Positions 28,436 to 46,301 of a DNA stretch of 46,301 nt are shown here, piece by piece. Under the pieces are notes generated by a model that had not been told where the DNA came from, ran no database searches, and saw only the letters and a program-made list of their open reading frames with translations. A program made the translations under genes and the position numbers. The stretch is from Lentimicrobium sp. Lineage in GTDB: Bacteria > Bacteroidota > Bacteroidia > Bacteroidales > Lentimicrobiaceae. Numbering within the stretch: position 1 is the first letter of the stretch; each line of letters begins with the position of its first letter. The DNA is taken from contig JANJXJ010000195.1 in the NCBI GenBank assembly GCA_024709105.1, forward strand, positions 1 through 46,301, written 5' to 3'.

Positions 28436-28499
28436 TTGCCGGAGACCTTTTTTTGAATTCAGGGAAAACAAAAGCTTAAAAACAAAAGAACCAAAAGAC

Positions 28500-30782: not shown

Positions 30783-30805
30783 TTAGCCTGAAAATTTTAT
30801 TTTTA

Positions 30806-30848
30806 AAGCGGGCAGGCAAAATCAGAGTCTGCCTGCTTCATTTTCATT
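30806..30848 (+). terminator. Rho-independent terminator after the GH92 run
   Basis: The arms 30806-30817 (AAGCGGGCAGGC) and 30827-30838 (GTCTGCCTGCTT) form a 12-bp stem with two G-U pairs and a 9-base loop, followed by CATTTTCATTATT. It lies about 25 bases after the last GH92 stop. Confidence 0.7.
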
Positions 30849-30873
30849 ATTACACGGATATTGTTTTATTATT

Positions 30874-30890
30874 CCGAAAACGTTTATCGG
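30874..30890. promoter_or_regulatory. LacI-type operator upstream of the LacI gene
   Basis: CCGAAAACGTTTATCGG contains the perfect core AAACGTTT (30878-30885) flanked by CCGA and TCGG. The core fits AAnCGnTT, the general pattern of LacI/GalR operators. Its place about 55 bases upstream of the -7 box suggests autoregulation, or control of this promoter by another LacI-family protein. Confidence 0.5.
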
Positions 30891-30945
30891 ATAAATTGTA
30901 ATGCTCTACATTTTAAAGGAAGCATAAATGTGTTAATAATTTCCG

Positions 30946-30953
30946 TACATTTG
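30946..30953 (+). promoter_or_regulatory. -7 promoter box of the LacI gene
   Basis: TACATTTG is an exact TAnnTTTG match about 40 bases before the ATG at 30994. No clear -33 box was found. Confidence 0.4.
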
Positions 30954-30993
30954 AGGCACAGGAAATGGTTCGGAATAAAAAAAACAGAAAAAT

Positions 30994-32013
30994 ATGGCTG
31001 CAAATCCGGTTACGATAATGGATCTGGCAAAATTGCTGAACCTTTCCAAGTCAACGGTAAGCCGCGCTTTAAAAAATCATCCTGACATAAGTCCTTCTAC
31101 CCGCGAGGCTGTAAAGCAACTGGCCGATGCTCTGAATTACAGACCTAATTCCGTTGCGGTAACACTTCGCCACAAAAAAAGTAAAATCATAGGTTTGGTA
31201 GTGCCTCAGATTTCCTATTTCTTTTTTCCATCGGTTGTTAAGGGTATTGAAGATGAAGTTGCCCGGCATGGTTATACAATCATGATTATGCAGTCGAACG
31301 AAGAGTATGAAAGAGAAAAGCAGGCATGTGACCACCTGATGTCGGGGAATGTAGAAGGAATACTTGTTTCGGTTTCGATGCAGACACTCGATTTTAACCA
31401 TTTTGATAAAATTATAGATTCAGGTTTGCCGGTTGTGTTTTTTGACCGCGTTCCTGAAAACTGCCAGGCCGACATGGTGCTGGTTGATGATACCGATGGT
31501 GCCTACAGGGCAACCCTTCACCTGATAGAAACAGGCAAAAAGCGGATAGGTATTTGTACCGGAACTCCCAACCTGCTCATCAGCCGAAACCGGCTTAAAG
31601 GTTATAAACGTGCTCTTGCAGAATCAGGGATTGATCTGGATGAAAGATATATTTTTGAAGGAGAAAGTCCCGCCGAGGTGGAAGCCGGTATGGAAAAACT
31701 GCTCAGCCTGCCCGACCCTCCCGATGGAATTTTCGCCATAAGCGACCTGACTATGGCAGGTATTATGCGGGCCATTTATAAGCGAAGATTGAAAATCCCT
31801 GAAGACATCGGAGTAATTGGTTTCTGCGAAGAACCTTTCAGCCTGATGTACAATCCTCCCCTTTCTACCATTAAGCCGATGGGTTACGAAATTGGCCGTA
31901 CTGCAGCAAGAATGCTTTTTAACAAGATACTTAATGCTGAACCCAACCTTTCTCAGGGCCGCGTATTGCTTGCCGGAGACCTGATAGTAAGAGAATCAAC
32001 GTTAAAAGATTAA
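30994..32013 (+). CDS. LacI/GalR-family transcriptional regulator
   Basis: The 339-residue protein has the LacI helix-turn-helix at residues about 6-28 (TIMDLAKLLNLSKSTVSRAL) and the hinge helix near 48-58 (YRPNSVAVTLR). A periplasmic-binding-protein-like sensor domain follows (about 60-335; KIIGLVVPQISYFFFP, VVFFDRVPENCQADMVLVDD, GVIGFCEEPFSLMYNPPLSTI). It should bind a sugar effector and AAnCGnTT operators. Such sites occur before its own gene and before the TonB receptor at 38.2 kb. It stands between the GH92 run and the convergent sucrose-type locus, 23 bases from the permease stop. The operator sites make the sucrose-type locus the more likely target. Confidence 0.9.
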   Translation: MAANPVTIMDLAKLLNLSKSTVSRALKNHPDISPSTREAVKQLADALNYRPNSVAVTLRHKKSKIIGLVVPQISYFFFPSVVKGIEDEVARHGYTIMIMQSNEEYEREKQACDHLMSGNVEGILVSVSMQTLDFNHFDKIIDSGLPVVFFDRVPENCQADMVLVDDTDGAYRATLHLIETGKKRIGICTGTPNLLISRNRLKGYKRALAESGIDLDERYIFEGESPAEVEAGMEKLLSLPDPPDGIFAISDLTMAGIMRAIYKRRLKIPEDIGVIGFCEEPFSLMYNPPLSTIKPMGYEIGRTAARMLFNKILNAEPNLSQGRVLLAGDLIVRESTLKD

Positions 32014-32036
32014 CGCCTGTAAATAAATTGCCTGAG

Positions 32037-33269
32037 TTAATACTCGGTCTCCTCAAGTTTCTTCAGGCGGGCTGTGGTTGGGGAGTAAATAAGATTAATA
32101 AGAGCTCCTGCAAACAGCAATCCGGCAAAAATGGTTGCAACCGTAAATCCAGCCAGGGGATTCTTACCATAGGCATCACTAACAGCACCCATAATCAGTG
32201 GCCCGACAGCAGCACCGGCAGCAGTAAAAAACAATATCACTCCTGCCACAGCTCCGTGGCTTGATTTAGGGAAACAGCTGATTCCTTTTGAATTAATGGT
32301 TGGATAAATAACCGACATAAATAGCCCTGACAACGGCAGCAACAGCACAGCCAGATGTATGCCCACGGTTATACTCAGAATAAAGCAAATAAAAATTGCT
32401 CCGCTGAAAAGTGCCATAGCACCGCTCCAGTTGAATCTGCGTAGAATAAATGCACCCAGGAATCTGCCGCCTGCCCTCAGGAAGAAGAAAACCGATAACG
32501 AATAAGTTGCCAGCACCAGCAAGCCTCCGCCGTATCCTTCAAGCAGGGTTGGCATCCATACGTATATTGCCGATTCTACAGCAACATAAAGAAATGCGGC
32601 AAATGAGAATCCCAGAGCATATGGATCTTTGAGCATTTTAAGTGTTCTTCTGAGATTTACAGGTTCTTCTTTTGATTGTTTGGTGGGCGGGTATTTTACC
32701 AGCATGGAAATTCCGATAAGGATAAAACCCATAATGGCAGCCACTACATAAAGGTACTTCCATTCTACGTTTTGATTTAACAGGTAACTAACCAGAAAAG
32801 TGCCTGCAATGGCACCTACGCCAAAAAAGCCTTCTACCATATTCATGGTTGAGGTATGTTCGGTGTTTGATGTGCTGATGTCGCCGATAAGAGCCAGCGC
32901 CGCAGTTTTGAAAATACCGATGGCAAGGCCCGAAATTATCAGCAGGGTTAGAAAGAATCCAAAACTGTTTCCGGCAATAAACAGGAGTGAATTTACAGCA
33001 AACAAAAGAAGCCCTATGATGATGGTTTTTTTTCGTCCGAGCTTATCGGCCAGGAAGCCCAGAAGTATTCCTCCTAAAGCAATGGCTACCATCGGGCCAT
33101 AATGAAGCAAGCCTGCAGAAGTCATGCTGAGCTCGAATTGCTTCATCACCACACGTATGATTTCTCCCACAGCATCGGTTGTCATGGCAAACATCATAAA
33201 CATAAGGTAGGTTAACCATTTTATGGTGGTGAGATTTCTTTTGCCGGTTATTGCTGTTGTGTCTTTCAT
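32037..33269 (-). CDS. MFS sugar permease
   Basis: The 410-residue protein has about twelve membrane helices with the MFS loop motif GFLADKLGRKKTIIIG between helices 2 and 3. A central cytoplasmic loop (KYPPTKQSKEEPVNLRRTL) separates the two halves. It is the last gene of the minus-strand unit kinase - GH13_18 - permease, so it probably brings the glucoside cleaved by the GH13_18 enzyme into the cytoplasm. The start at 33269 lies 19 bases after the GH13 stop. In-frame ATGs at 33296, which overlaps that stop, and 33317 are possible and would add 9 or 16 polar residues. The substrate cannot be read from the sequence. Confidence 0.85.
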   Translation of the reverse strand: MKDTTAITGKRNLTTIKWLTYLMFMMFAMTTDAVGEIIRVVMKQFELSMTSAGLLHYGPMVAIALGGILLGFLADKLGRKKTIIIGLLLFAVNSLLFIAGNSFGFFLTLLIISGLAIGIFKTAALALIGDISTSNTEHTSTMNMVEGFFGVGAIAGTFLVSYLLNQNVEWKYLYVVAAIMGFILIGISMLVKYPPTKQSKEEPVNLRRTLKMLKDPYALGFSFAAFLYVAVESAIYVWMPTLLEGYGGGLLVLATYSLSVFFFLRAGGRFLGAFILRRFNWSGAMALFSGAIFICFILSITVGIHLAVLLLPLSGLFMSVIYPTINSKGISCFPKSSHGAVAGVILFFTAAGAAVGPLIMGAVSDAYGKNPLAGFTVATIFAGLLFAGALINLIYSPTTARLKKLEETEY

Positions 33270-33288
33270 ATTGCTTGTTGATTTTTGG

Positions 33289-34758
33289 TTATGCATTGTA
33301 AACCAGCTGTTCTCCATTATTACCTGTGTAGGTTATGGTATTGCTGAAGTCGTTTAAGTTAATAGTCAGGGTGCATTCTGTCCCATTGTGCTTGCGGTTA
33401 AGGGAAAGTATATGGTCAGGAGAATCCAGAATAACCAGTTCCCCGTCGAAAGCCGGATGTGTATTCCTGAACCTGATCAGTTGCTGCAATCTTTTTACAA
33501 CCGGTTTTTCAGCTGCTGCAGCAATTTCTTCCATGCTGAAATTATGGCGGTTTATTTCGCGGCCTTCGCCGGTTTTATTTACCATTTCCATGTCGTTTTC
33601 ACCAGCCAGCAAACCTACATAATAAACCTGAGGAATTCCGGGAGCAAAAAACTGTATTGCCCGGGCTGCAATATAAGCATTGTCGTTGCTGTTAAGCACC
33701 GAATAATATGAACATCTTATCTGATGAACATCAAATCCATCGGCGGCTTTATGTTTGTCAGAAAAAACATAGCTTAGATTGGCTCCCCTTTCGAGACACA
33801 CATCTACTATCTTGCGCGCTTCGGTGCTGCTAACCATTTCGTCAAGGTCGGGTTTAACAGGTATTCCGTCGTGGCAGTCGAGCATGGTAAACTGTTTAGA
33901 AGGACGATCAGCCAGGTATTTTTTTAGTCGTTCACCCGACCCGTTGATGAGTGCTTCAAGTATTGTATAGGGCAGAATAAAATCATAAATCCAGTGACCT
34001 TTTTCTGCCAGTTTGTATTGTATGGAGTAGTGCGAATGAACCTCAGGAAGCAGCGCCAGTCCCAATGAGGCAGCTTTTTCTGAAATCCAGTCGATAAACC
34101 GGTAAATTTCGGGTTCAACAAAGAAGCAGCTTGTTCCGGGTTTCTTAATGATATAGCCAACTGCATCAAGACGAACAATTTTAACTCCGTTTGCGGCGAA
34201 GTTTTCGAGGAAACTTTCAAGCATCCTGCGGGTAAGCGGAGCATTTATGTCCAGATCAATCTGTTCTGATGGATTTTCTTTTCCGAAAGTAGTCCAAACC
34301 AACTGCTTTTTCTTACCGGGGCCGGTTTCGTATTCCGACCAGGGTTGTTTGCGGCGTAAAAACATCAATGCAACATCTTGGGCAACTGGTTTCCCGCTTT
34401 CCCAGATTTTATCAGGGGTTAGAAACAGCTCCGCCCATTCCGATTTATCGCCGTTATTCAGAAAATCCTGAAACCATTCTGATTTCCGCGAAATATGATT
34501 TACCATCAGATCAAGCAGAATATGGTAATCCTGCGAAAGTTGCCTGATGTCGTTCCAGGAGCCGAATTGCGGGTCAATTTCCAGATAAGTAAGTGGCGCA
34601 AAACCACGGTCGCCCGAAGACGGGTAGGGTGGAAGGATGTGTATTCCCCCTTCAAAAAGATTGGGAAAATACTTGCTGAGTGCAGCCTTAAGCGCTTGCA
34701 GGTTTCCTCCCAGCGAATCGGGATAGGTAATCAGCTGAACCTTGTTTTTGAGTTCCAT
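33289..34758 (-). CDS. GH13 subfamily 18 phosphorylase, sucrose phosphorylase-like
   Basis: The 489-residue protein closely resembles Bifidobacterium sucrose phosphorylase: KVQLITYPDSLGGNLQAL at the start, GGIHILPPYPSSGDRGFAPL, and then VNHIS. The nucleophile is Asp198 (RLDAVGY), the acid/base Glu239 (EVHSHY) and the third carboxylate Asp297 (DCHDGI). YYSVLNSNDNAYIAARAIQFF and GIPQVYYVGLLAGENDME follow. These enzymes convert sucrose and phosphate to glucose 1-phosphate and fructose. Subfamily 18 also contains sucrose-6'-phosphate, glucosylglycerol and glucosylglycerate phosphorylases, so the acceptor is not certain. There is no signal peptide. It lies 9 bases after the kinase gene, and the permease follows directly. 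Confidence 0.88.
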   Translation of the reverse strand: MELKNKVQLITYPDSLGGNLQALKAALSKYFPNLFEGGIHILPPYPSSGDRGFAPLTYLEIDPQFGSWNDIRQLSQDYHILLDLMVNHISRKSEWFQDFLNNGDKSEWAELFLTPDKIWESGKPVAQDVALMFLRRKQPWSEYETGPGKKKQLVWTTFGKENPSEQIDLDINAPLTRRMLESFLENFAANGVKIVRLDAVGYIIKKPGTSCFFVEPEIYRFIDWISEKAASLGLALLPEVHSHYSIQYKLAEKGHWIYDFILPYTILEALINGSGERLKKYLADRPSKQFTMLDCHDGIPVKPDLDEMVSSTEARKIVDVCLERGANLSYVFSDKHKAADGFDVHQIRCSYYSVLNSNDNAYIAARAIQFFAPGIPQVYYVGLLAGENDMEMVNKTGEGREINRHNFSMEEIAAAAEKPVVKRLQQLIRFRNTHPAFDGELVILDSPDHILSLNRKHNGTECTLTINLNDFSNTITYTGNNGEQLVYNA

Positions 34759-34767
34759 GTTTTGTCT

Positions 34768-35421
34768 TTACAGGTTTTCAGTAACTTTCAGGTCATTGGA
34801 AATCAGGAAGTCGGCCAGAAAACGATGCCCTGCAATAATTTTGTGCTCTGTAATGAGAATGTTTTCCACAAATGGATCATTTACTTCGTTGCCCCGGTTG
34901 CGTTTTTTGCGATAAGGCAGCGTGTCGTTGTAATCGCTGGTAATAAATATACGCGAATCTACTTTACGCAAAAGCGAAACATAAGTCCCTTCTATAATAA
35001 TTACCTTGATACCTTCAAGGCTGATTCTGAGTTCGGTAACAGTATTTGCATGATAGTCAATTATTGGTGTGCTTATGGTATTTTTCCCTGACAAGGCATC
35101 ATTTATATTTAGTTGCAACAGGTCAAGCCTTACTTCTGCATGAGGTCCGAGCCATGCCGGGTCTGATTTTCGGCGGGCGTCGTTCAGCGCCGGAGGCAGC
35201 ACAAAATAATTGTCCTGATTAATTACCAGGGATTCTATTCCCCTGTTCCTCAATTCGCGGAACAATGAAGCGCCGGTTTCGGTTTTTCCGCATCCCGATT
35301 CGCCTGCAACAGTAATGATGTAAACTGCGTTTTTATTCTTTATCTGACTTTCTGTTTTGTCGGCAATCTGCCGGGCTACCTGGTCGTGCAGTGAATTAAC
35401 AGGAATCTGATTGGTATTCAT
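34768..35421 (-). CDS. P-loop kinase of the uridine kinase/phosphoribulokinase family
   Basis: The 217-residue protein has Walker A at 40-47 (GESGCGKT), a substrate-loop-like QDNYFVLPPALND, PIIDYH, a Walker B-like strand VIIIEGTYVSLL and a lid-like RKKRNRG, where uridine kinases have an RD-x-x-ERG motif. It belongs to the same fold as uridine kinase, phosphoribulokinase, pantothenate kinase and the P-loop glycerate kinases. It directly precedes the phosphorylase with 9 bases between them. A role in phosphorylating the acceptor released by that enzyme (fructose, or glycerate if the substrate is glucosylglycerate) is attractive but inferred. Housekeeping uridine kinases are usually not placed in sugar operons. 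Confidence 0.75.
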   Translation of the reverse strand: MNTNQIPVNSLHDQVARQIADKTESQIKNKNAVYIITVAGESGCGKTETGASLFRELRNRGIESLVINQDNYFVLPPALNDARRKSDPAWLGPHAEVRLDLLQLNINDALSGKNTISTPIIDYHANTVTELRISLEGIKVIIIEGTYVSLLRKVDSRIFITSDYNDTLPYRKKRNRGNEVNDPFVENILITEHKIIAGHRFLADFLISNDLKVTENL

Positions 35422-35482
35422 AGCTTTGGAGATGTTAGTTAATTAAGCAGTTACATGAAATTTCAGCTTTTGTTTTTCCGGT

Positions 35483-35515
35483 AAAAAACACCGGTGGCAG
35501 TACCCACCGGTGTTT
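35483..35515 (-). terminator. Strong rho-independent terminator after the TonB receptor
   Basis: The arms AAACACCGGTGG (35486-35497) and CCACCGGTGTTT (35504-35515) form a perfect 12-bp stem with a 6-base loop. On the minus strand the stem is followed by TTTTTT. It separates the receptor from the kinase - phosphorylase - permease unit and may limit read-through into it. Confidence 0.85.
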
Positions 35516-35536
35516 CACCAACCAACCAAAAATTGC

Positions 35537-38197
35537 TCAGAAATTATACACTACTGAGAAATTTGTTGCCCTTCCCGTAATGGGGCGGCCACGCATGTAG
35601 TTCACGGCATTGTCAGTAAATGCATCGCCTTCCATTTCGGTTAAACCGAATGTATTGAACAGATTATTCACATTAGCACGAACCACCAGCCCGCGGGTAA
35701 TTTTATATGATGCAAAGGCATTTACATATGTAAATCCAGGGAGTACCACTACGTTATCGAATTGTGCAAATACTTTGGTTGTTCCAACCAGACTGAAACC
35801 TATGGCTGCATTTCCGATTCTGTAGGATGGATTGATGTTGAACATAAGATCGGGAACCCTGCGTGGTGTGTTGCCAACTTGCTCAGGATTGTTGCTCTTT
35901 GATATCTCAGCTTTGGTATAAGTAGCACCGGCTGTAGTTTCAAAATTTCCGAATTTTACCGAACCATCCACCTCAGCTCCGAAAGAAGTGTAGTCAATAT
36001 TGAAAACTTTTTCAAATTCAGAGTTCTGCTCAGATAATTTGGCCCAGAATCCGGTTACGTTAAAAGCATAATTGGTGTGTTTAAATTTAAACCCGATTTC
36101 TGCCTGTGAAATTTCATCGGCATCCAGCCCCGGAATGGTTTGTCCTTCGGCAGTAATGTAAGGTGAGTAAAGCAGCCTGTCGGCATTGGCCCTTGCACCT
36201 TTGCTGTATCTTGCAAATATGGCTTTGTTATCACCCAGTTTGTAGTTGGCTCCTACTGAATAAGAAAGATAGCTGTAATCGTAATCCACCGGATTAGGGT
36301 TGGCATTATTTAGTACGGTTGTGGTGGAATCAATGGCCGACATTACGCCGTCGTTGTTAACATCAACCGGAGTTTGCATGTTTGAGAGGTAGTATCCGTA
36401 AGCATTGCCGAAGTCGTAACGCATGCTGGCATCAATATTCAGATCGCTGGTGATTTCTACGCCAACATTGGCATAAGGAGCGTCAACGCTGTAGCGCATA
36501 TCGTAGCCGCGGGTACAGCAATTGCCCCAAGCGGGTACTCCGTGGGCGTAAAGACCGTTTTCGGTAGCAGCTGTGCCGTCGGCACGGGTCAGATTCATGA
36601 GCCTGATTCCATCGCCGTTGATGTCGGTTACATAGGCCTGCCACAGCCAGGTCATGTCAATACGCTGATAAGCTTTGTAATAACCGGCAGTAAGGTGAAT
36701 TTTGTCGTTAAATGACTTGGTGAGGTAAAAATCATTGGTAAAATTGTCGAGGCTGTTCATTTCAACATCGAAACTGTGAACTGTCATGAGAAGGCCATTT
36801 CCATTAAGAGCAGAAAGTTCGGCAGCTGAAAGAGCTTCACCTGCATTTGCTCCATTGGCATAACTTGCGGTGTAACCTGCACCAGCAATTGAGGTAGCAA
36901 TGGCGTCGGCTGTGTTAATGGCTACAGGGAAAGGTGAATTGAATTTGCCTTTATTGAATGCCATACGTGCTTTGTTTTTTACCATCCAGCCTTCGCCGAG
37001 TTCGAATGAGAATTCAGTGCCAACAGCAGTCGATATGGGGTGCATTCCATCACTGATATCACTGGTTCTGAGATTGCCGTTGCCATCAACACCATTCAGT
37101 TTGAGGAAGTAAGGGCTTTGCAGGGTTGATGTAAGTGCATCGTATCCTTCAATGGATTCGAAAGTGGGGTCAGCAGCAGTACCTGTTCCCTTAACCGGCA
37201 TCGGCATGTAGCTTATTGCTCTGTCGTTCAGATATTTAAAATATACGCGTGCATAACCTTTCTTGAAGTTTTTGGTGAGATTGGCTTTTATCTGGCCGCC
37301 ATAGTTGCCTTCGTAACCGGCATTGCGGGGGCCTTCGCCCTGGCGGAAGAAACCTCCCACATGGAAGCTGACATCTTTTCCAATGGGTGAGCCATACTCA
37401 AAGTCGGTTCTGAACGATCTGTGATCAACGCCCAGCGATGTACCTATGCTTCCACCTTCGGTAGCTCCGGTTTTGCTGATGAAGTTGATGATACCAGCGG
37501 GAGAGTTGCTGGCAAATGTTGAGGCAGAGCCTCCTTTGATGGCTTCAAGCCTGTCAATGGTGTAATCGGCACGCAGAAAAATATCGGCATTACCAAACGA
37601 AATATCGCCAAATTGCATAACTGGAAGTCCGTCTTCGTGTAATTGTAAAAATTTTGAACCTCCTGAAGTAATGGGAATACCACGAACCGAAATGTTTGCA
37701 TTTCCTTCACCACCGGTTGCTTCGGAGTGAATTCCGGGAATAGCTTTGAAAATTTCTGCTGTGGTAACTGCTCCGAATTCTTCAATGGCTTTCGGGCGCA
37801 TGGTATTTACATTGATGCTTGACTCAAGTGCCGATTTCTGATTCACAACACCGGTTACCACAATCTGATCAAGACCGATCAGGTCGGCAGATAGTTCGAA
37901 ATCAACATTAACTTCCTGCCCCGGAGCTAGTGTAATTTTTTTCTCAGCATTGCTGTAGCCTACATATGATACCACCAGGGTAAGTTCTCCTGAGTCGGTA
38001 TTGCTGAGCACATAGGCGCCGTTTACATCAGTAATGGTTCCGGCGGTTGTTCCTTTGACCCTTATGGTTGCTCCGATCAAGGTTTCTTTTGTTTGTGCAT
38101 CCTGAATTTTTCCCTTAATGGTGCCGGTTCCCTGTGCAAATACGGAAACAGAACCAATGCCGAGGAAAAGCAGCAAGTAAAGTAATGTTGTTTTCAT
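35537..38197 (-). CDS. TonB-dependent outer membrane receptor without SusD partner
   Basis: The 886-residue protein has a signal peptide (1-21, ending SVFAQ), a carboxypeptidase-regulatory-like domain (about 24-110; GTIKGKIQDAQTKETLIGAT), a TonB-box-like DQIVVTGV and a plug domain (about 120-230; ISVRGIPITSG, LEAIKGGSASTFASNSPAGI). A beta-barrel ends in the aromatic terminus FSVVYNF. Unlike SusC it has no SusD gene beside it, as in TonB receptors for small sugars such as sucrose or maltose in other bacteria. Its neighbours suggest that it takes up the glucoside used by the GH13_18 enzyme. It has its own promoter and terminator, and tandem LacI-type operators lie upstream. Confidence 0.93.
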   Translation of the reverse strand: MKTTLLYLLLFLGIGSVSVFAQGTGTIKGKIQDAQTKETLIGATIRVKGTTAGTITDVNGAYVLSNTDSGELTLVVSYVGYSNAEKKITLAPGQEVNVDFELSADLIGLDQIVVTGVVNQKSALESSINVNTMRPKAIEEFGAVTTAEIFKAIPGIHSEATGGEGNANISVRGIPITSGGSKFLQLHEDGLPVMQFGDISFGNADIFLRADYTIDRLEAIKGGSASTFASNSPAGIINFISKTGATEGGSIGTSLGVDHRSFRTDFEYGSPIGKDVSFHVGGFFRQGEGPRNAGYEGNYGGQIKANLTKNFKKGYARVYFKYLNDRAISYMPMPVKGTGTAADPTFESIEGYDALTSTLQSPYFLKLNGVDGNGNLRTSDISDGMHPISTAVGTEFSFELGEGWMVKNKARMAFNKGKFNSPFPVAINTADAIATSIAGAGYTASYANGANAGEALSAAELSALNGNGLLMTVHSFDVEMNSLDNFTNDFYLTKSFNDKIHLTAGYYKAYQRIDMTWLWQAYVTDINGDGIRLMNLTRADGTAATENGLYAHGVPAWGNCCTRGYDMRYSVDAPYANVGVEITSDLNIDASMRYDFGNAYGYYLSNMQTPVDVNNDGVMSAIDSTTTVLNNANPNPVDYDYSYLSYSVGANYKLGDNKAIFARYSKGARANADRLLYSPYITAEGQTIPGLDADEISQAEIGFKFKHTNYAFNVTGFWAKLSEQNSEFEKVFNIDYTSFGAEVDGSVKFGNFETTAGATYTKAEISKSNNPEQVGNTPRRVPDLMFNINPSYRIGNAAIGFSLVGTTKVFAQFDNVVVLPGFTYVNAFASYKITRGLVVRANVNNLFNTFGLTEMEGDAFTDNAVNYMRGRPITGRATNFSVVYNF

Positions 38198-38267
38198 GGA
38201 TTGGGTTTTTTAATGTAAATGTGTGGTTCTACCCAGAGGTTGGTTAAATTGTTGACTCTGGAGGTGG

Positions 38268-38298
38268 CAAATGTATATCATGTAACTGCCTGAGTCAA
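38268..38298 (-). promoter_or_regulatory. Bacteroidota promoter of the TonB receptor gene
   Basis: On the minus strand TTG (38296-38298), 20 bases of spacer and TACATTTG (38268-38275) fit the -33/-7 consensus. The box lies about 70 bases before the receptor ATG. Confidence 0.55.
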
Positions 38299-38333
38299 TA
38301 GACTTTGGCTGAGTTGCAATCGTTTTCTGATTT

Positions 38334-38357
38334 CAACCGGTTGTGCAACCGGTTGCA
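38334..38357. promoter_or_regulatory. Tandem AACCGGTT palindromes upstream of the TonB receptor
   Basis: CAACCGGTTG (38334-38343) and TGCAACCGGTTGCA (38344-38357) are perfect 10- and 14-bp palindromes set 12 bases centre to centre. They lie about 36 bases upstream of the -33 element. The AAnCGnTT core is typical for LacI-family regulators, and one is encoded at the other end of this locus. Confidence 0.65.
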
Positions 38358-38650
38358 GTTGATAACTTTATTGAAAAAAATTTTATTAGTTCATGAAAAT
38401 TGTTCATGCATTTTGAAAGAAACCAACTTTTTACTAAAAATTGCCCCTGTTTTACAGCTAAAAATTGCCATGATTTTTATTTTGAGTGTCTTGCGATGAA
38501 AATTATGAAGAATCGCTGAGTTTGGAACGGTTTTTATTTCCATCCGGTAGGTTCAAAGGAGTTTCAGGCTTTTCTAACCGTTAGCCTGAAAAGTAAACAG
38601 ATTTTTTTTGAGATTTAATCATTAAAAGTTCAGGTTTACAGTTAACTTTC

Positions 38651-39402: not shown

Positions 39403-40083
39403 TCATTCATATTCACAACTATCAATATGCCTGCCAATTACCAGTAGTTCCCTGACTATGCGGTAATGGGCATGATCAGCAGCTTCGAAAGCCTGGTCTA
39501 GTTTCAGATTGGGGTACTCATAATTCAGATCATCAAGTTTAAACGAAATGTAATTTCGCATCCCCGACATAATTTCTAATAAATCATCAGCCGCATTGCG
39601 CCTTTTACTGCCTTCGAAATTAAACGGATAGCTGAAAATAACTAAAAAACGTACCTTTTTCTCCTGAAGGATAGGAATCAAAGCAGCAGCCAGACCACTT
39701 CCTGAATAGCCTCCTGCAGATACAAGCAACATATTGTTATTGTCCTCATCAAACAGAGGCAATACATCCGCGGGTAATTCAACTGGCACTTCAGGATCCG
39801 GATAAATGAATGTATGCCGGCTGGTTTTAATTTCCTTAAAAGCAGAAGGCACAAACCTGATCAGATTTATGCCTTCGGGTAAGGGCAATCCGGGGTTGCC
39901 CACAGCAGTATACTTCCCGGCAATTTTGCGGCGGTGCAGGTATTTCAAAACATTCACTCCGCCATATCCCAGTCCAAAAAAATGACAGTTTTTCTCAGGT
40001 CTAAAACCTGCCTCTTTCAACGTGGCCATGTACCCAAAAACCTTGATGGCTTGCCTTCTCTTTTCAAATGATTTGTGTTTCAT
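39403..40083 (-). CDS. Truncated FtsZ/tubulin-like protein (GTP-binding domain and core helix only)
   Basis: The 226-residue protein follows the FtsZ N-terminal domain from end to end. Residues 37-44 (GLGYGGVN) match the first glycine loop GVGGGGGN. Residues 124-130 (GGYSGSG) take the place of the tubulin signature GGGTGTG. Residues 153-158 and beyond (PFNFEGSKR) are nearly identical to FtsZ PFNFEGKKR. AFEAADHAHYRIVREL aligns with the core helix H7. The chain stops there, so the T7 loop that completes GTP hydrolysis in a filament, and the whole C-terminal domain, are missing. It is too short to be the cell's main FtsZ. It may bind nucleotide without polymerising, or act with another protein. 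It ends with TGA before a terminator, and no frameshifted continuation was found. Confidence 0.75.
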   Translation of the reverse strand: MKHKSFEKRRQAIKVFGYMATLKEAGFRPEKNCHFFGLGYGGVNVLKYLHRRKIAGKYTAVGNPGLPLPEGINLIRFVPSAFKEIKTSRHTFIYPDPEVPVELPADVLPLFDEDNNNMLLVSAGGYSGSGLAAALIPILQEKKVRFLVIFSYPFNFEGSKRRNAADDLLEIMSGMRNYISFKLDDLNYEYPNLKLDQAFEAADHAHYRIVRELLVIGRHIDSCEYE

Positions 40084-40160
40084 AACGTTTTATTTTTCTG
40101 TTAACGGTTTAAGAGCAGCCAAAGCGCGGAAGGGGAGCCAAAGTGAGGCCGCAGGTAAAA

Positions 40161-40201
40161 ATTGGGGTTGGAACCCTGCTTTACAGGCAACCAACCCCAA
40201 T
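40161..40201. repeat. Perfect 11-bp inverted repeat in the leader of the FtsZ-like gene
   Basis: ATTGGGGTTGG (40161-40171) pairs exactly with CCAACCCCAAT (40191-40201) around a 19-base loop. It lies about 78 bases before the start codon, inside the expected transcript. No T-run follows on the minus strand, so a regulatory RNA structure or protein site is more likely than a terminator. Confidence 0.55.
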
Positions 40202-41201: not shown

Positions 41202-42404
41202 TTAAAGTTTGATTACCTGCTTATTCAGGGTATATTGCCCGCAATTAACTCTCAGTATATAGATTCCGGGTTTTAATGAGCTGAAATCCATTGATATACC
41301 ATCACCATGCATGGCAGAAGAGATTTTTGACATTACACTGTTTCCGGTAACATCCAAAAGTTGTATGGTATAACTTTTGTCTTTCCAGCCGTGTGCTTCC
41401 ACAAAACACAGCTCCGAAACCGGATTAGGAAATATCTTAATCTCTTGCTCCTGATGAATTCCGGCTGATGTGACCACCCCCTCATCAGCATACCACAAGC
41501 CATCGGATACAGTACTGAAAACAACATTATCGCTGTTTACTCCAACTGCACTTAACAAATACCCTCCCATCGGCATGCCCTGGGTAATCAATCTAAAGCT
41601 GCTGCTGTCAGTATGTTGCACATAACCACCGGCCAGGGTGGCAACATACAGATAATCTCCAAGGGTAGCCATGTCCATTATGTTCATACCCGGAACAAGG
41701 CCTGTTGATGCGGGTGACCAGTTCAGGCCATCATCGAGGCTGTGATACATCAGGGTACCTGATGCAGCAAAAAGTTCGTCGTTAAGTTTGGCCAGCTGTA
41801 CAACTTCATACATGCCTGATCCGTAAGGATACCAATTGATTCCATTATCTGAGGATCGGTATAGGTAGCTTCCTGAGTTGGAAAGACCGGCGAGAATGTC
41901 TGAGCCATTTTTAAGGAAGCACCTCACTGATTGATTTGATGCCCCCACACTTACAGCCGACCAGTTCTGACCGGAATTCTCTGACCTGAAAACTCCTTCA
42001 TCCGTGGATACAAGCAGGGTGGTTCCATCTGAAAAAATTGCGCCTGTATTAAGGCTGGCAAGTCCATTATTCACAGCAGTCCAGCTATAACCCAGCATAG
42101 CCGACCGGTATACGCCATTTGCCGTTGAAGCATACAACACAATGGCTGACCCTTCAACAGATGTAATAATCCTGCGAATGTCACTGCTGCCTATACCTGT
42201 AGAAGAACCATACCAGTCGGTGAAGTTTTGTGTTCGCTGTATGCCGTTGTTGGAGGTCGCCACATACCAGACATTTCCGTATGAAAGTATGTCGGTGACC
42301 TGGTTTGATACCGGCAGGCCCGACTGTATCCATTGGGCTTGAACTGATCCACTGACCAGAACTACCAGAAAAATGGTTTTAAAAATGAAAAGAGTTGTTT
42401 TCAT
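41202..42404 (-). CDS. T9SS cargo protein with sortilin/BNR-like beta-propeller
   Basis: The 400-residue protein has a signal peptide (ending SVQAQ) and a propeller of repeated strands typical of sortilin/BNR proteins (WYVATSNNGIQRTQNFTDWY, VYRSAMLGYSWTAVNNGL, VFRSENSGQNWSAV, LYRSSDNGINWYPYG, MYHSLDDGLNWSPAS). It ends in a type A T9SS sorting domain (IKIFPNPVSE, SSLKPGIYILRV, NKQVIKL). It should be secreted across the outer membrane and anchored or released at the surface. ATG 42404 was chosen because the upstream ATG at 42416 sits with GAGGAAA just before it, which would act as its ribosome site. The binding target is unknown. Confidence 0.85.
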   Translation of the reverse strand: MKTTLFIFKTIFLVVLVSGSVQAQWIQSGLPVSNQVTDILSYGNVWYVATSNNGIQRTQNFTDWYGSSTGIGSSDIRRIITSVEGSAIVLYASTANGVYRSAMLGYSWTAVNNGLASLNTGAIFSDGTTLLVSTDEGVFRSENSGQNWSAVSVGASNQSVRCFLKNGSDILAGLSNSGSYLYRSSDNGINWYPYGSGMYEVVQLAKLNDELFAASGTLMYHSLDDGLNWSPASTGLVPGMNIMDMATLGDYLYVATLAGGYVQHTDSSSFRLITQGMPMGGYLLSAVGVNSDNVVFSTVSDGLWYADEGVVTSAGIHQEQEIKIFPNPVSELCFVEAHGWKDKSYTIQLLDVTGNSVMSKISSAMHGDGISMDFSSLKPGIYILRVNCGQYTLNKQVIKL

Positions 42405-42518
42405 AGATTTCCTCATTAGGCGTAAGTTGAATTACAGGTTTGCTCAAATCAAGTATGCCGGAAAATTTGTATTTACCCTGAATTTCACAATCTGAGATCT
42501 GGCATGGAAATTTGATTT

Positions 42519-44012
42519 TCAAATTTTTACCAACTTCTTCACAATCGTTTGATTTCCAAAATTTATCCTGATGAAATAGGTTCCGGCAGGCAGGTGTGTG
42601 ATATTAAGTTCAAGGTTTCGGGTTTCTGGTGCCGGGTGCCGTATTTCGAGGATTTCTCCGTATAAATTGGCCAGCTCCAGGCTTTGAAAGTCAAAGTCGT
42701 TCTCTGAATCATCTATTCGGATTTGAACGCTGAACAGGCCTTCAGCAGGGCTTGGAGCCACCACAATCATTTCCTGTCTCCGTAAATCCGGTTGGTCATA
42801 CAATTCCAAACCTAATGGGTTTCCGTTGGGATTCCTTTTATAAAAGACATTCCATTCTCCTGTCCTGTTATCGCACCAAACCACATTTACCGACTGTCCG
42901 TTGAGGGCAACCGACGGATACCAGGAATCAGAAGCGTCGTTTGTCAGTCTTGTATCTGTTGACCAGGATAATCCGGCATCTGTTGAATTTTTATAATAGA
43001 TTTCCCAGTTCCCGTCACGGTGCTCATTCCAAATCAGGTGGAGGGCATCTCCCGAAACTGCAACATTGGGTCCATAGGAATCATCGCCGGCAAACGTAAG
43101 GCGGGATTCACTACCCCAGGTTTCACCGGCATCCTGAGACCGGGCAAAATACAATTCATAATAGTCAACTTCATCCCTTGAATCGCTCCAGAATACATAA
43201 ACATTATTACCAGTTGCACCTATGGTAGGATAACGGCCAACCCCTGCCTGGTTATTGAAAGAAAGCCTGACAGGTTCACTCCATGTGCCCGCCTGTTCTG
43301 AAAACCGGCAATAGAAAATCTCCTGGCCAATGCTGAAAGGAGTTTTGCTGTAAGCCAGATGTAATGTTCCATTATTGGTTGCAATAGATGGGAATCCCGG
43401 GTTTTCCTCAACAGGTGTTGTCAGTTTCTCATCTTCGCTCCAGTTTACTCCTCCATCAGAAGATTTTTTGAAATATAGTTCCGTGTAATTGCCATTTGGC
43501 GGGTAGTCGCGGCTATCTTCCCAAATCACATATACATGCTGCCCGTCAGCTGCAATTACAGGATGCTGAGAATCAAGCAAACTGTTTGTAAGACGCACCG
43601 CTCCAATCCACGTTGCCCCGCCATCGGTTGAGTGGTTGTAGTAGATTTCACTGTTGTTGCCGGCAACTGTCTGGCTCCAGACCACATGTACATGATCTCC
43701 GGAAACAGCAACTGCCGGGGAGGATGAATAGGTGTACATAGCTGATAGAAGCACCTGTTCGTTCCAGGTAACACCTCCGTCGGGTGAATTTTTATACAGA
43801 ATGGCATCGGTTAAGGTAAGAGAGCCAGCCCATACCACATGAATCTGATTATCCCGGGCTGCAATGCACCAGGCATTGTTATCAGAGGTGTATGACCCCG
43901 GTGTAGTGGTAAGTTGAAAATCCGGCTCCCATTGCGACCACCCTGCAAACGGCAGCAAGAATGTGAATAAAACAAGTAAAACCATCTTGTAGAAAAGAGT
44001 TTGTGCTTTCAT
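42519..44012 (-). CDS. T9SS cargo protein with sialidase-like Asp-box repeats
   Basis: The 497-residue protein has a signal peptide (1-26, ending AGWSQ) and about seven repeats. Each combines an Asp-box (NSPDGGVTWNEQ, HSTDGGATW, KSSDGGVNWSED, RSQDAGETWGSE, NSTDAGLSWSTD) with a following strand of the type VHVVWSQ, VYVIWEDSRD or LHLIWNEHRDG. This is a six- or seven-bladed propeller of the sialidase type, but the arginine triad of true sialidases was not seen, so enzymatic activity is not supported. It ends with a T9SS sorting domain (LPAGTYFIRINFGNQTIVKK). It lies 102 bases upstream of the sortilin-like gene on the same strand. Confidence 0.85.
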   Translation of the reverse strand: MKAQTLFYKMVLLVLFTFLLPFAGWSQWEPDFQLTTTPGSYTSDNNAWCIAARDNQIHVVWAGSLTLTDAILYKNSPDGGVTWNEQVLLSAMYTYSSSPAVAVSGDHVHVVWSQTVAGNNSEIYYNHSTDGGATWIGAVRLTNSLLDSQHPVIAADGQHVYVIWEDSRDYPPNGNYTELYFKKSSDGGVNWSEDEKLTTPVEENPGFPSIATNNGTLHLAYSKTPFSIGQEIFYCRFSEQAGTWSEPVRLSFNNQAGVGRYPTIGATGNNVYVFWSDSRDEVDYYELYFARSQDAGETWGSESRLTFAGDDSYGPNVAVSGDALHLIWNEHRDGNWEIYYKNSTDAGLSWSTDTRLTNDASDSWYPSVALNGQSVNVVWCDNRTGEWNVFYKRNPNGNPLGLELYDQPDLRRQEMIVVAPSPAEGLFSVQIRIDDSENDFDFQSLELANLYGEILEIRHPAPETRNLELNITHLPAGTYFIRINFGNQTIVKKLVKI

Positions 44013-44063
44013 GGGGGAGTTATTTAAAGGTTCGTTGTTAATACAGACTCTTTTTTTTTGATT

Positions 44064-45536
44064 TCATAACCTGATGATTTTTTTCACAATTATTTGGTTT
44101 TCAGACTCTATTCTGACGAAGTAGATTCCAGGGGGGAAGTGTGTGATGTCCATCAGAATGCTGGCTGCACCCCGTTCAGATTTGAGTTTTTCCCGGGTTT
44201 TCCCTGTGGGATCAACGATCTCAACCTGACAATCCGGATAAAGCATATTGGATAATAAAATCTGAAATTTTCCCTGTGTCGGGTTTGGCATTATTTCAGC
44301 ACTTATCCGGCCGGGTTCATCAAATCCCTGTGCCTCCTGCCGCGACCAGGAATAATAATCCCGGGTGCTGAGCACAAACTGCTGCACATGTACGATCCAT
44401 TTATGATACGAATCGCTGTGCCACCTGTTCAATGAATCGAATGTATAAAGGTGCATGTCTACCCCTTTCCAGGATGCTGACCCTGCATCCCATTGCGAAA
44501 GGGCATCTTCAGCAAGCAGGGTATCCTGAAAATATTCATAAGCACGCATATAGCCAGGCACCCATTCACCAAAGTTATTACCGCTGTATCCGGTGTTTCT
44601 CAACATTCTGTTAAACGCGTTATAGGTCATTTCAGATTTTATACTTGGCATCCACGTGACGGTATCTTCGCCAATGCGGTAATATTCATACAGGGTCATA
44701 TTACCGGACTCATCCCACTCCCAATAATCCTTCTCCTGTGGAATCCATTCTTCGATTGATTCCTCGTATTTCCAATACCACGACTGAATTTTGCGATGGA
44801 GTTCATCCCAGGTGCATTCTTCCTTTATCATATAGTACCACAGTTGTGTATTGGGATTATAAAAGTACCTGGTTTTCAGAACCATATCGCCGGCTGTATT
44901 GTACTCATAGTCGTGCCTTAATTTTGGATAAAAAACCCCTGTACCTTCTTCATCTTCCCATTCGGTCACGCGTTCCGGAAGTCCCTCAGGATTGTATTCA
45001 TATACACTGTATGCCGTTGAATCCCAATGCTGGCTGAGGTTATTCCATTCGAAATTCACTTCATTCGTGAGCCTTTGCTGATTATCGTAATAATTCAGTT
45101 CCATTTTATAATTTATCCAGTCGGGAGATGATAGGCTCCAGCCATCGGAATATGATTCGGAAACATTGCCATGGGCATCAAATACATATCTTTCCCTGAA
45201 AAGGCCTTTGTAAGCCATGGTTTCGTTTTCCCAGAACAATACCGCCCACATGGTTTGCCGGTCCTGAGCATCATACTGCCATTTTTCCATTCGGTATGGC
45301 ACCCAAAGATTCAGGGCCTGCTCCCTGACGAATTCCTCGGTTTGTGTGGTTCGCCTTTGCTCATCGTACCGATAGGTTATCCGGTAAGAGAGAACCGAAT
45401 CGCTGATGCCGGAAAATTTCCAGGTAATTACTGAATCGAGCACTTCGGTTTGCGGATTCCCGCGCCACATCTGGCCCCATATGCAAAGGGGTAACAGAAT
45501 AAGCACTTCCATCAAAATTGTAATTGAGTTTTTCAT
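44064..45536 (-). CDS. T9SS cargo protein with YD-like repeats
   Basis: The 490-residue protein has a signal peptide (1-21, ending CIWGQ). The body is built of about nine imperfect repeats of 35-45 residues with Tyr-Asp turns and Trp-rich stretches (ITYRYDEQRRTTQTEEF, EKWQYDAQDRQTMW, RYVFDAHGNVSESY, NYYDNQQRLTNEVNF, HDYEYNTAGDMVLKT, YWEWDESGNMTLYEYY). These resemble YD/RHS repeats but lack the RHS core and toxin end. A T9SS sorting domain ends the chain (IMPNPTQGKFQI, FPPGIYFVRIESENQIIVKK). It lies 8 bases downstream of the next gene and is probably co-transcribed with it. Its function is unknown. Confidence 0.8.
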   Translation of the reverse strand: MKNSITILMEVLILLPLCIWGQMWRGNPQTEVLDSVITWKFSGISDSVLSYRITYRYDEQRRTTQTEEFVREQALNLWVPYRMEKWQYDAQDRQTMWAVLFWENETMAYKGLFRERYVFDAHGNVSESYSDGWSLSSPDWINYKMELNYYDNQQRLTNEVNFEWNNLSQHWDSTAYSVYEYNPEGLPERVTEWEDEEGTGVFYPKLRHDYEYNTAGDMVLKTRYFYNPNTQLWYYMIKEECTWDELHRKIQSWYWKYEESIEEWIPQEKDYWEWDESGNMTLYEYYRIGEDTVTWMPSIKSEMTYNAFNRMLRNTGYSGNNFGEWVPGYMRAYEYFQDTLLAEDALSQWDAGSASWKGVDMHLYTFDSLNRWHSDSYHKWIVHVQQFVLSTRDYYSWSRQEAQGFDEPGRISAEIMPNPTQGKFQILLSNMLYPDCQVEIVDPTGKTREKLKSERGAASILMDITHFPPGIYFVRIESENQIIVKKIIRL

Positions 45537-45544
45537 GGCCTGAA

Positions 45545-46301
45545 TTATTTCTGGAGTACAATTTTTCCTGAAAAAAGCTGGTTACCGGCTATTACCCTGC
45601 AGATGTATATTCCGCCGGCAAGAACCCCTGGTTCCCAGGAAATCCGGTTGTTCCCGGCCTGACAGAAGCCATGGTTTGCCTGATATACCGTTCGTCCCTG
45701 CAAATCAGTAACAGAAACGGTTACATCTGCTGAGGCATTCAGTTCAAAATCGAAAACAGCGATGTTGTTTGCCGGATTGGGTGAAATCTGCAAAGGCCGC
45801 GAAGTGTCTTTTTTCCCAAAGAAGGGAAAGTCATCTATCCCCAGCGGGGGCAAAGGCAGTTTGGTCAGTTCACCACCTTTTCTATACAGAATAATATTTG
45901 CATTCATTCCACTGCCGCCTGAAATCCGGCCTTCGCCAACAGCTACATAACCTCCGCCTGCCAGCGGCTGAGCATCGAAAACATTACCCCTGGTCGGCAT
46001 ATATACATTTCCGGGAGACCAGGCAGCGGTATCAGCCGAGATGAAGTTTCCATCCGGATCATAAACCGCCACATAAATCATTTCCTGTGAGCCGAAACCA
46101 TTGCGACTGAGTATGTAATTACCATCGGAATTCCTGGCGATGGAGTTGAAACCACCATTTTGGTTCGCATGCGGCATTTTCTCCCAGAGTGTGGCGCCAT
46201 CAGCATCAAGTTTAGCCAGGTACTCACTGTTCATGTAGTATCCGGCAAGCAGAAATGAACCGTCATCCTGTTCGATAATATCCCCTCCCGTATCCCAGTA
46301 A
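45545..46301 (-). CDS. T9SS cargo protein, 5' end outside window
   Basis: The frame is open to the window edge, so only the last 251 residues are visible. They show repeated segments such as GGDIIEQDDGSFLLAGYY, YLAKLDADGATLWEK, GNYILSRNGFGSQEM and GGGYVAVGEGRISGG. This is the delta-60/propeller-like pattern common in T9SS cargo. A type A sorting domain follows (LQISPNPANNIAVFDFEL, VLAGGIYICRVIAGNQLFSGKIVLQK). A methionine at 46234 is internal, not the start. The next gene begins 8 bases downstream. Confidence 0.85.
   Translation of the reverse strand, partial: YWDTGGDIIEQDDGSFLLAGYYMNSEYLAKLDADGATLWEKMPHANQNGGFNSIARNSDGNYILSRNGFGSQEMIYVAVYDPDGNFISADTAAWSPGNVYMPTRGNVFDAQPLAGGGYVAVGEGRISGGSGMNANIILYRKGGELTKLPLPPLGIDDFPFFGKKDTSRPLQISPNPANNIAVFDFELNASADVTVSVTDLQGRTVYQANHGFCQAGNNRISWEPGVLAGGIYICRVIAGNQLFSGKIVLQK

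What the first reader, a model, noticed from the sequence alone, without database searches (positions are those of the whole stretch)
39403..40083. Stand-alone FtsZ-like G domain lacking the T7 loop and C-terminal domain
The 226-residue protein keeps the FtsZ glycine loop (GLGYGGVN), a modified tubulin signature (GGYSGSG for GGGTGTG), the nearly identical PFNFEGSKR segment and the H7 helix, then stops. In FtsZ and tubulin the T7 loop of one subunit completes the GTPase site of the next, so a protein ending at H7 should not polymerise in the usual way. It could bind GTP as a monomer, cap or poison FtsZ filaments, or work with a partner. It is flanked by two surface-type lipoproteins and has a long structured leader. 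I am not aware of a described family with this truncation, but I cannot search.
Basis: partly seen in the sequence, partly recalled or inferred. Interest (0 to 1): 0.75.

Follow-up and report, generated by a model that had tools for sequence, protein, structure and literature searches.

The report
Short FtsZ-like domain without polymerising half
A Bacteroidota bacterium carries, besides its normal cell-division protein FtsZ, a small relative that stops before the part FtsZ needs to form filaments; similar short copies turn up rarely and in unrelated places in other Bacteroidota, so it looks like a real protein family of unknown use rather than a broken gene.

Summary
In detail: window 39403-40083, minus strand, encodes an intact 226-residue protein with a predicted FtsZ fold (AlphaFold pLDDT 89; the 50 PDB matches listed are all FtsZ) that ends at helix H7, with no T7 loop or C-terminal domain. 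It is not a local truncation: I found eight copies in seven Bacteroidia genomes, 183-240 residues, 22-37% identical, grouping apart from FtsZ; all seven genomes also have full-length FtsZ. The family is rare and patchy: 3 of 19 genomes of the genus, at loci with no shared neighbour. The pocket is altered: the T6 Asn of FtsZ is lost in 7 of 8 and the third signature Gly in 8 of 8. So 'binds GTP' is open; 'does not polymerise like FtsZ' follows from the anatomy but is untested. Two new points: two or three members begin with Tat-export-like signals, of which the window N-terminus may be a decayed version; some copies sit beside restriction/defence-type genes, the window copy not. Best reading: a non-polymerising, FtsZ-derived ligand-binding module on accessory DNA. 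New family in a known superfamily; function unproven.

The parts
39403..40083 (-). 226-aa short FtsZ-fold protein (P0001)
   Evidence: ORF; FtsZ fold; family
40009..40080 (-). N-terminal helix, residues 2-25, with RR at 9-10 (KRRQAIKVFG); lines up with Tat-like signals of L064, L070, L071 but has no hydrophobic core
   Evidence: descent from a Tat signal is inference
39952..39975 (-). T1 glycine loop GLGYGGVN, residues 37-44
39694..39714 (-). T4 signature, modified: GGYSGSG, residues 124-130
39601..39627 (-). PFNFEGSKR, residues 153-161 (E and R of the FtsZ segment kept)
39418..39501 (-). H7 helix, residues 195-222; protein ends four residues later, no T7 loop
39279..39312 (-). terminator-like hairpin just downstream of the gene, between it and the convergent DUF6252 gene
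   Evidence: consensus match only
40153..40199 (-). stem followed by a T-run in the 304-nt gap upstream; possible terminator of the FISUMP gene, in which case the short gene is transcribed alone
   Evidence: not listed by the pattern scan; inference

Best explanation
It is one member of a rare family, not named in any library I searched, of stand-alone FtsZ-fold domains in Bacteroidia (183-240 aa). SHOWN: intact gene, FtsZ fold by prediction, end at H7, no T7 loop and no C-terminal domain, seven related copies elsewhere. STRONG INFERENCE: it cannot build FtsZ-type protofilaments by itself, because the bottom half of the longitudinal interface and the catalytic T7 aspartates are missing. WEAKER INFERENCE: the kept T1 loop, T4 backbone and Glu/Arg pair hold a phosphate-containing ligand, but without the FtsZ guanine/gamma-phosphate switch, so it works as a static or partner-gated ligand-binding module, not as a hydrolysing filament. 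WEAKEST: it is an accessory (conflict- or envelope-related) gene that moves between lineages and works with whatever partner is encoded beside it.
For: Fold: AF2 pLDDT 89.1, pTM 0.86, the 50 Foldseek rows listed all FtsZ; second member L064 pLDDT 79.9, again all FtsZ in the 50 rows listed. Family: 8 copies of 183-240 aa; the 8 group apart from seven FtsZ, support 100/99 and 100/98. Members not in the searching profile stood well above FtsZ: L064 161.5 bits (profile A1), G544 185.6 and G722 154.2 (profile A2), FtsZ at most 87.2 there and 100. Pocket: Glu of PFxFEG 8 of 8; the Arg position Arg 6, Lys 2 of 8; first T1 Gly 8 of 8; T6 Asn replaced by Leu in 7 of 8; T4 third Gly replaced in 8 of 8. 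PMC8936486 (passages): catalysis uses D210/D213 of the neighbour's T7, R143, and G72 of T3. Accessory: found in 3 of 19 genomes of the genus (single-protein search); these three copies are 32.6-33.5% identical and share no neighbour within 8 kb; synteny with two relatives that lack the gene there stops at window 38383.
Against: No binding or polymerisation data exist. The H3/T3 change is seen in the window model, but that stretch is low-confidence in L064 and a helix 109-116 follows. No conserved partner. L066b scores only 49 bits and is the weakest member. Base composition gives no sign of recent transfer for the window copy (GC 0.424 vs 0.422 for the window). The comparison locus is itself accessory: its TonB receptor was found in 4 of 19 genomes of the genus, own included. 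Patchiness could also reflect loss, fast evolution, search insensitivity or draft-genome gaps.
Confidence: 0.55

Rival explanations
1. FtsZ cap or poison: the top (nucleotide) face is kept and the bottom face is lost, so it binds the exposed T7 face of host FtsZ and blocks growth of the filament, for example as a growth-arrest effector in defence-type loci.
For: Geometry of the truncation; PMC8936486 passages suggest that monomers add through the GTP-bound top surface; restriction/defence-type neighbours at L064, L066, L070.
Against: T3/H3, near the FtsZ top face, is remodelled in the window model; Tat-like members would leave the cytoplasm; the two neighbours of the window copy match no PADLOC model.
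Confidence: 0.18
2. Extracytoplasmic ligand-binding protein: the ancestral form is folded with its ligand in the cytoplasm and exported by the Tat system; the window copy has a decayed signal and stays in the cytoplasm.
For: L070 and L071 pass a simplified Tat rule of my own and L064 (NRRDLIKKLIAAGLLAAMP..STSA) misses it by one uncharged residue; of 470 distinct ORF translations in all loci fetched by then 4 passed, two of them these. Pfam TAT_signal matches 1 of 8 (E 6.1e-4). TatC is present in all seven carriers. AF2 gives L064 an N-terminal helix followed by a low-confidence linker.
Against: Five of eight show no working-looking signal, and three of these have almost no N-terminal extension; TatC was found in 21 of 23 genomes, so it does not discriminate; I recall no tubulin-fold protein outside the cytoplasm.
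Confidence: 0.2
3. Heteromeric polymer subunit: a partner (host FtsZ or another protein) supplies T7, so it joins filaments at one end or as a doped subunit.
For: T1, T4 backbone and Glu/Arg kept; full-length FtsZ present in the same genome.
Against: It could only be terminal in a filament; no conserved partner gene; altered T6/T3.
Confidence: 0.1
4. Decaying FtsZ duplicate without function.
For: Low identity among copies (22-37%); G007 also holds a rearranged partial copy.
Against: Eight intact ORFs of similar length; 14 columns invariant in all eight, 7 of them in T1, T4 and PFxFEG; no C-terminal-domain remnant better than E 0.32 in the 3.0-4.3 kb searched at each locus.
Confidence: 0.05

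Closest known systems
FtsZ (TIGR00065; PF00091 GTPase domain)
   Same: Fold S1 to H7, T1 glycine loop, T4 signature, PFxFEGxxR, AFxxAD of H7
   Different: No T7, no C-terminal domain; T4 third Gly changed; T6 Asn changed in 7 of 8; 32.9 bits vs cut-off 295.2, PF00091 23 vs 33 bits
FtsZl1 / Tubulin_2 (Makarova and Koonin 2010, PMC2875224, text part 1 of 5 read)
   Same: Divergent FtsZ-like GTPase region; the paper could not identify T6-H7 or a known C-terminal domain there either
   Different: The paper describes mostly long proteins with coiled coil and helical C-terminal domain; here a stand-alone domain with H7, and no Tubulin_2 among the Pfam matches of the 8 members
FtsZl2 (same paper)
   Same: Divergent FtsZ-like protein in bacteria
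   Different: The paper says T1, T4, T6, T7 and H7 are all kept, plus a C-terminal region of about 300 aa; proteobacterial
Short FtsZ domain of G098 (L169:3495-4163, found here)
   Same: 223 aa, ends after H7, no T7; beside split GmrSD-like genes
   Different: Groups with FtsZ, not with the eight (86/82); pocket nearly canonical (GLGTGGNP, GGGCGTG, NNQ); looks like a second, independent truncation
PhuZ / TubZ of phages and plasmids
   Same: Tubulin-fold outliers on mobile DNA (recalled)
   Different: Full length (recalled); phrog_4733 'tubulin PhuZ' only E 0.054; best viral structure match E 2.8e-6 vs 2.9e-8 for FtsZ

Membership tests
FtsZ | Full-length model score above NCBIfam cut-off | tested here: not met
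   32.9 vs 295.2 bits
FtsZ | T7 loop completing the neighbour's GTPase site | tested here: not met
   absent in 8 of 8; proteins end at or just past H7, except L063 with a longer unrelated tail
FtsZ | C-terminal domain | tested here: not met
   absent; no remnant downstream; AF2 model ends with H7
FtsZ | GTP-dependent polymerisation | not testable with these tools
   needs biochemistry
FtsZ/tubulin superfamily (fold) | N-terminal Rossmann GTPase fold with H7 | tested here: met
   by prediction; PDB profile E 1.9e-19
FtsZ/tubulin superfamily (signature) | GGGTG(S/T)G | tested here: not met
   GGYSGSG in the window, GG[YHR][TSG]G in the family
FtsZ/tubulin superfamily (guanine pocket) | T6 Asn and H7 Asp (roles recalled, not from a call) | tested here: inconclusive
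   T6 Asn kept only in L066b (1 of 8); H7 Asp kept in 5 of 8, Asn in 2, Thr in 1
FtsZl1 / Tubulin_2 | Tubulin_2 domain with coiled coil and helical C-terminal domain | tested here: not met
   no Tubulin_2 among the 11 Pfam families matched by the 8 members at E<=1; lengths 183-240
FtsZl2 | T7 kept and ~300-aa C-terminal region | tested here: not met
   and lengths
Tat substrate (window protein) | RR motif followed by uncharged hydrophobic core | tested here: not met
   RR present, core absent; L070 and L071 pass, L064 fails by one residue, the other five fail
Anti-phage defence gene | PADLOC model match of the protein itself | tested here: not met
   window protein 0 families up to E 10
Anti-phage defence gene | enriched next to defence genes | tested here: inconclusive
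   6 of 14 nearest sizeable neighbours match PADLOC models at E<=1e-3, from 4 of 8 loci; one is a MoeB/ThiF-type gene; no background rate measured

The most novel reading that the evidence does not exclude
A family of tubulin-superfamily proteins that have given up polymerisation and, in some members, are exported through the Tat system carrying a bound ligand: to my recollection the first tubulin-fold proteins working outside the cytoplasm, and a non-filament use of this fold in mobile bacterial gene sets. The independently truncated G098 copy beside GmrSD-like genes would suggest that T7-less FtsZ domains were recruited for bacterial conflict more than once.
Probability: 0.18. Interest if true: 0.85.

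Novelty: new variant of a known kind. Interest (0 to 1): 0.55.

Why it matters
FtsZ and tubulin are known as filament formers whose active site is completed by the next subunit. A conserved family that keeps the nucleotide-side domain and discards the other half asks what this fold does without polymerising, a question that can be tested on a small protein. The Tat-like signals and the restriction/defence-type neighbours of some members give two concrete, cheap tests of function.

Tried and rejected
Local truncation or frameshift of a full-length paralog: rejected, eight intact short copies and no C-terminal remnant in the stretches searched. A different Rossmann family (ThiF, NAD-binding): rejected by Foldseek and the PDB profile search, whose best 49 rows are FtsZ. 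Conserved partner gene: not found. Upstream genes differ (FISUMP; T9SS protein; WYL; RHS-repeat; AAA_13; DUF932; PDDEXK_4; L063 lies near a contig end). Of 74 neighbour frames of at least 100 aa within 8 kb of the eight copies, three pairs matched across loci at E<=1e-4: a response-regulator-like pair (L099, L103), the TonB receptor two genes from the window copy with the gene directly after the L071 copy (27% over 164), and a T9SS-type pair. Phage or plasmid carriage: no member in viral contigs (pattern-based scans), phages or plasmids. Query L070 gave three plasmid and three phage records: four annotated ftsZ, one unannotated and not checked, one a full-length FtsZ paralog of a Marinomonas plasmid. 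Query L169 gave 116 plasmid and 20 phage records with FtsZ-type matches that I did not sort for short ones, and no viral contig. TatC as a discriminator: useless. GC signal of transfer: none for the window copy. Structured leader: modest, probably a terminator.

Limits: the search for related loci on genome contigs uses peptide patterns (none with the single protein; 4 loci with the profile). The thresholds of 1e-20 and 1e-22 would hide members as divergent as L066b, so counts are lower bounds. (order) covered the same 16 and 87 genomes as 37 and 38. The Tat rule, the ORF caller and the 470-ORF background are my own simplifications; the background is biased towards FtsZ loci and includes frames that are not genes.

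Full report
WHAT IS THERE. Window 39403-40083 on the minus strand is an intact ATG-to-stop ORF of 226 codons. Its best matches are FtsZ: NCBIfam ftsZ E 4.3e-8 over residues 116-211, Pfam Tubulin E 1e-4, below the curated cut-off, PDB FtsZ E 6.4e-6 over residues 36-216. The same genome has a normal FtsZ with a 546-codon open frame on another contig. AlphaFold2 on an alignment of five members gives pLDDT 89.1 and pTM 0.86, and the 50 Foldseek PDB matches listed are all FtsZ (best E 2.9e-8, TM-score by query length 0.63). The model runs S1 to H7 and stops four residues after H7; the T7 loop and the C-terminal domain are absent.

IT IS A FAMILY, NOT A BROKEN COPY. A single-protein search of 99 related genomes found matches (E<=0.001) in 86; the four best (E<=4.9e-17; G000, G012, G007, G073) lie in short frames of 206-280 codons, the next is E 1.3e-10 and the others are FtsZ-type by frame length or, where read, by sequence; one of them, in G098, is a short frame of another kind (below). 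Profile searches: the same 4 of 393 genomes of the order (>=294 bits; next 78.5); 3 of 395 genomes of the class sample, two of them new, G544 (185.6 bits) and G722 (154.2), others <=87.2; 1 of 395 in the phylum sample (G000 itself); 1 of 16 in the family of G544 and 1 of 87 in that of G722. A scan of genome contigs added Marinilabiliaceae bacterium ANBcel2 (L064; the other three loci found were already known), which holds a second, divergent copy of 183 aa (L066:9043-9591, called L066b; seen in pieces, read whole). That makes eight copies in seven genomes, 183-240 aa, 21.8-36.8% identical, with 14 columns invariant in all eight. All seven genomes also hold a long FtsZ frame (494-584 codons, own genome). 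A tree puts the eight together apart from seven FtsZ (100/99; 100/98 with two more rows); branches are long and the FtsZ rows are close to one another, so this shows separateness, not age. No trace of an FtsZ C-terminal domain better than E 0.32 lies in the 3.0-4.3 kb searched at each of the eight loci.

THE POCKET. Alignment with FtsZ of seven related genomes: the first Gly of T1 and the Glu of PFxFEG are kept 8 of 8, the Arg of that segment is Arg in 6 and Lys in 2, the H7 Phe is kept in 7 of 8 and the H7 Asp in 5 of 8. Changed: the third Gly of GGGTGTG is Tyr in 6, His in 1 and Arg in 1; the T6 Asn is Leu in 7 of 8. The window model has strands 82-86 and 91-95 where FtsZ has T3 and helix H3, but in the L064 model this stretch is low-confidence and a helix 109-116 follows. 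PMC8936486 (passages only) says that FtsZ catalysis uses T7 residues D210 and D213 of the neighbour, G72 of T3 and the charge of R143. So the catalytic half is gone, one phosphate-side charge is kept, and base recognition has probably changed; the roles given to the T6 Asn and H7 Asp are from memory. An invariant His precedes the T1 loop (H34, 8 of 8) where the seven FtsZ rows have Lys.

THE N-TERMINUS. L070 (MNITRRETLKHLSLLGTLAFLPQSAFA) and L071 (TSRRQVLKSLISLGAAALLPSVLKA) pass a simple Tat rule of mine (RR motif, at least 13 uncharged residues, hydrophobic core); L064 (NRRDLIKKLIAAGLLAAMPIKSTSA) fails by one residue; the other five fail. Of 470 distinct ORF translations of at least 150 aa in all loci fetched by then, 4 passed, two of them these; that background is biased, because many loci are FtsZ loci and all six frames were taken. 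Pfam TAT_signal matches one of the eight. In the alignment the window (KRRQAIKVFGYMATL) and L062 (NRIKALQKLSFKPWL) line up with these signals but lack the hydrophobic core; three members have almost no extension. TatC is present in all seven carriers, and in 21 of 23 genomes searched. I read the window N-terminus as a decayed signal; that is inference.

CONTEXT. Left of the gene, the stretch from about 30974 to 38383 (LacI, MFS, amylase-like, PRK-like, TonB receptor) matches two genomes of the genus, and a third as far as its short contig reaches, at 68-75% nucleotide identity; nothing to the right of 38383, the short gene included, matches the stretches fetched there. The receptor itself was found in 4 of 19 genomes of the genus, own included, so this locus is itself variable. 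The three copies in the genus share no neighbour within 8 kb and are about 33% identical. Neighbours elsewhere: WYL regulator about 25 bp upstream, AbiE genes some 2 kb away (L064/L068); PD-(D/E)XK gene whose stop overlaps the start codon, behind genes that I take from sequence alone for a type I restriction system (L066); AAA_13 about 0.4 kb upstream and Fic downstream (L070/L099); DUF932-like gene about 25 bp upstream and a TonB-type protein downstream (L071/L100); RHS-repeat gene (L065/L103); T9SS proteins (L062, L063). Of 14 nearest sizeable neighbours scanned with PADLOC, 6 matched, from 4 of 8 loci; one is a MoeB/ThiF-type gene and probably irrelevant; the two of the window did not match. 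No background rate was measured, so the defence link is a lead only.

A SECOND, INDEPENDENT SHORT COPY. G098 holds a 223-aa FtsZ domain that also ends after H7 (L169:3495-4163), with a nearly canonical pocket (Pfam Tubulin E 3.6e-30) and grouping with FtsZ (86/82). It lies behind split GmrSD_C and GmrSD_N genes, before a 383-codon frame without Pfam match and, further on, a WYL regulator. Against a single operon: a terminator-like stem lies between GmrSD_N and the short gene (3433-3459; 1 found in the stretch scanned, 1.2 expected by chance). I keep it apart from the family.

WHAT IS KNOWN. Searches of the held open-access library (listings and starts of abstracts, of which searches showed 20 of 32 and 10 of 60 papers) showed no described family of this kind; subscription papers are largely not held, so this is weak evidence of absence. 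The nearest are FtsZl1 and FtsZl2 (PMC2875224, first part of five read), whose features were tested here as absent. PMC9871819 (passages) calls Tubulin_2 proteins sparse and diverse; the passages seen mention nothing like this.

VERDICT. A real, rare FtsZ-fold family lacking the polymerising half: new variant of a known kind. Non-polymerisation follows from the anatomy; ligand, partner and role are open.

Noticed in passing
L169:1-6844 (G098:C5): Second, independent T7-less FtsZ domain (223 aa) near split GmrSD_C/GmrSD_N genes, an unknown 383-codon frame and a WYL regulator, with a terminator-like stem before it; G201 and G289, labelled with the same genus, also showed two FtsZ-profile matches.
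   Followed up: partly
L162:8364-10945 (Marinomonas algicola plasmid NZ_CP061942.1): Full-length divergent FtsZ paralog (320 aa, T7-like segment by eye) overlapping a PcfJ-domain gene by a few bases, some way behind a type I restriction-modification operon.
   Followed up: partly
G048:C11, G086:C83: Three tandem FtsZ-type frames of 447-482 codons within 4 kb in each genome.
   Followed up: no
L067:10394-10714 (G407:C21): Near-identical 225-bp and 57-bp pieces of the L063 short gene's 5' region, in swapped order, on a second contig: rearranged partial copy or assembly artefact.
   Followed up: partly
L170:2743-4321 (G233:C9): The ordinary ftsZ locus reads as two frames (284 codons, then 193), as after a frameshift or sequencing error.
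   Followed up: no
window 26174-38197: Sugar-use gene set: two GH92 enzymes, LacI regulator, MFS transporter, amylase-like and PRK-like proteins, TonB receptor; the part from about 30974 is syntenic in relatives.
   Followed up: partly
window 41202-46234: Run of four proteins with type IX secretion tails to the right of the short gene.
   Followed up: no
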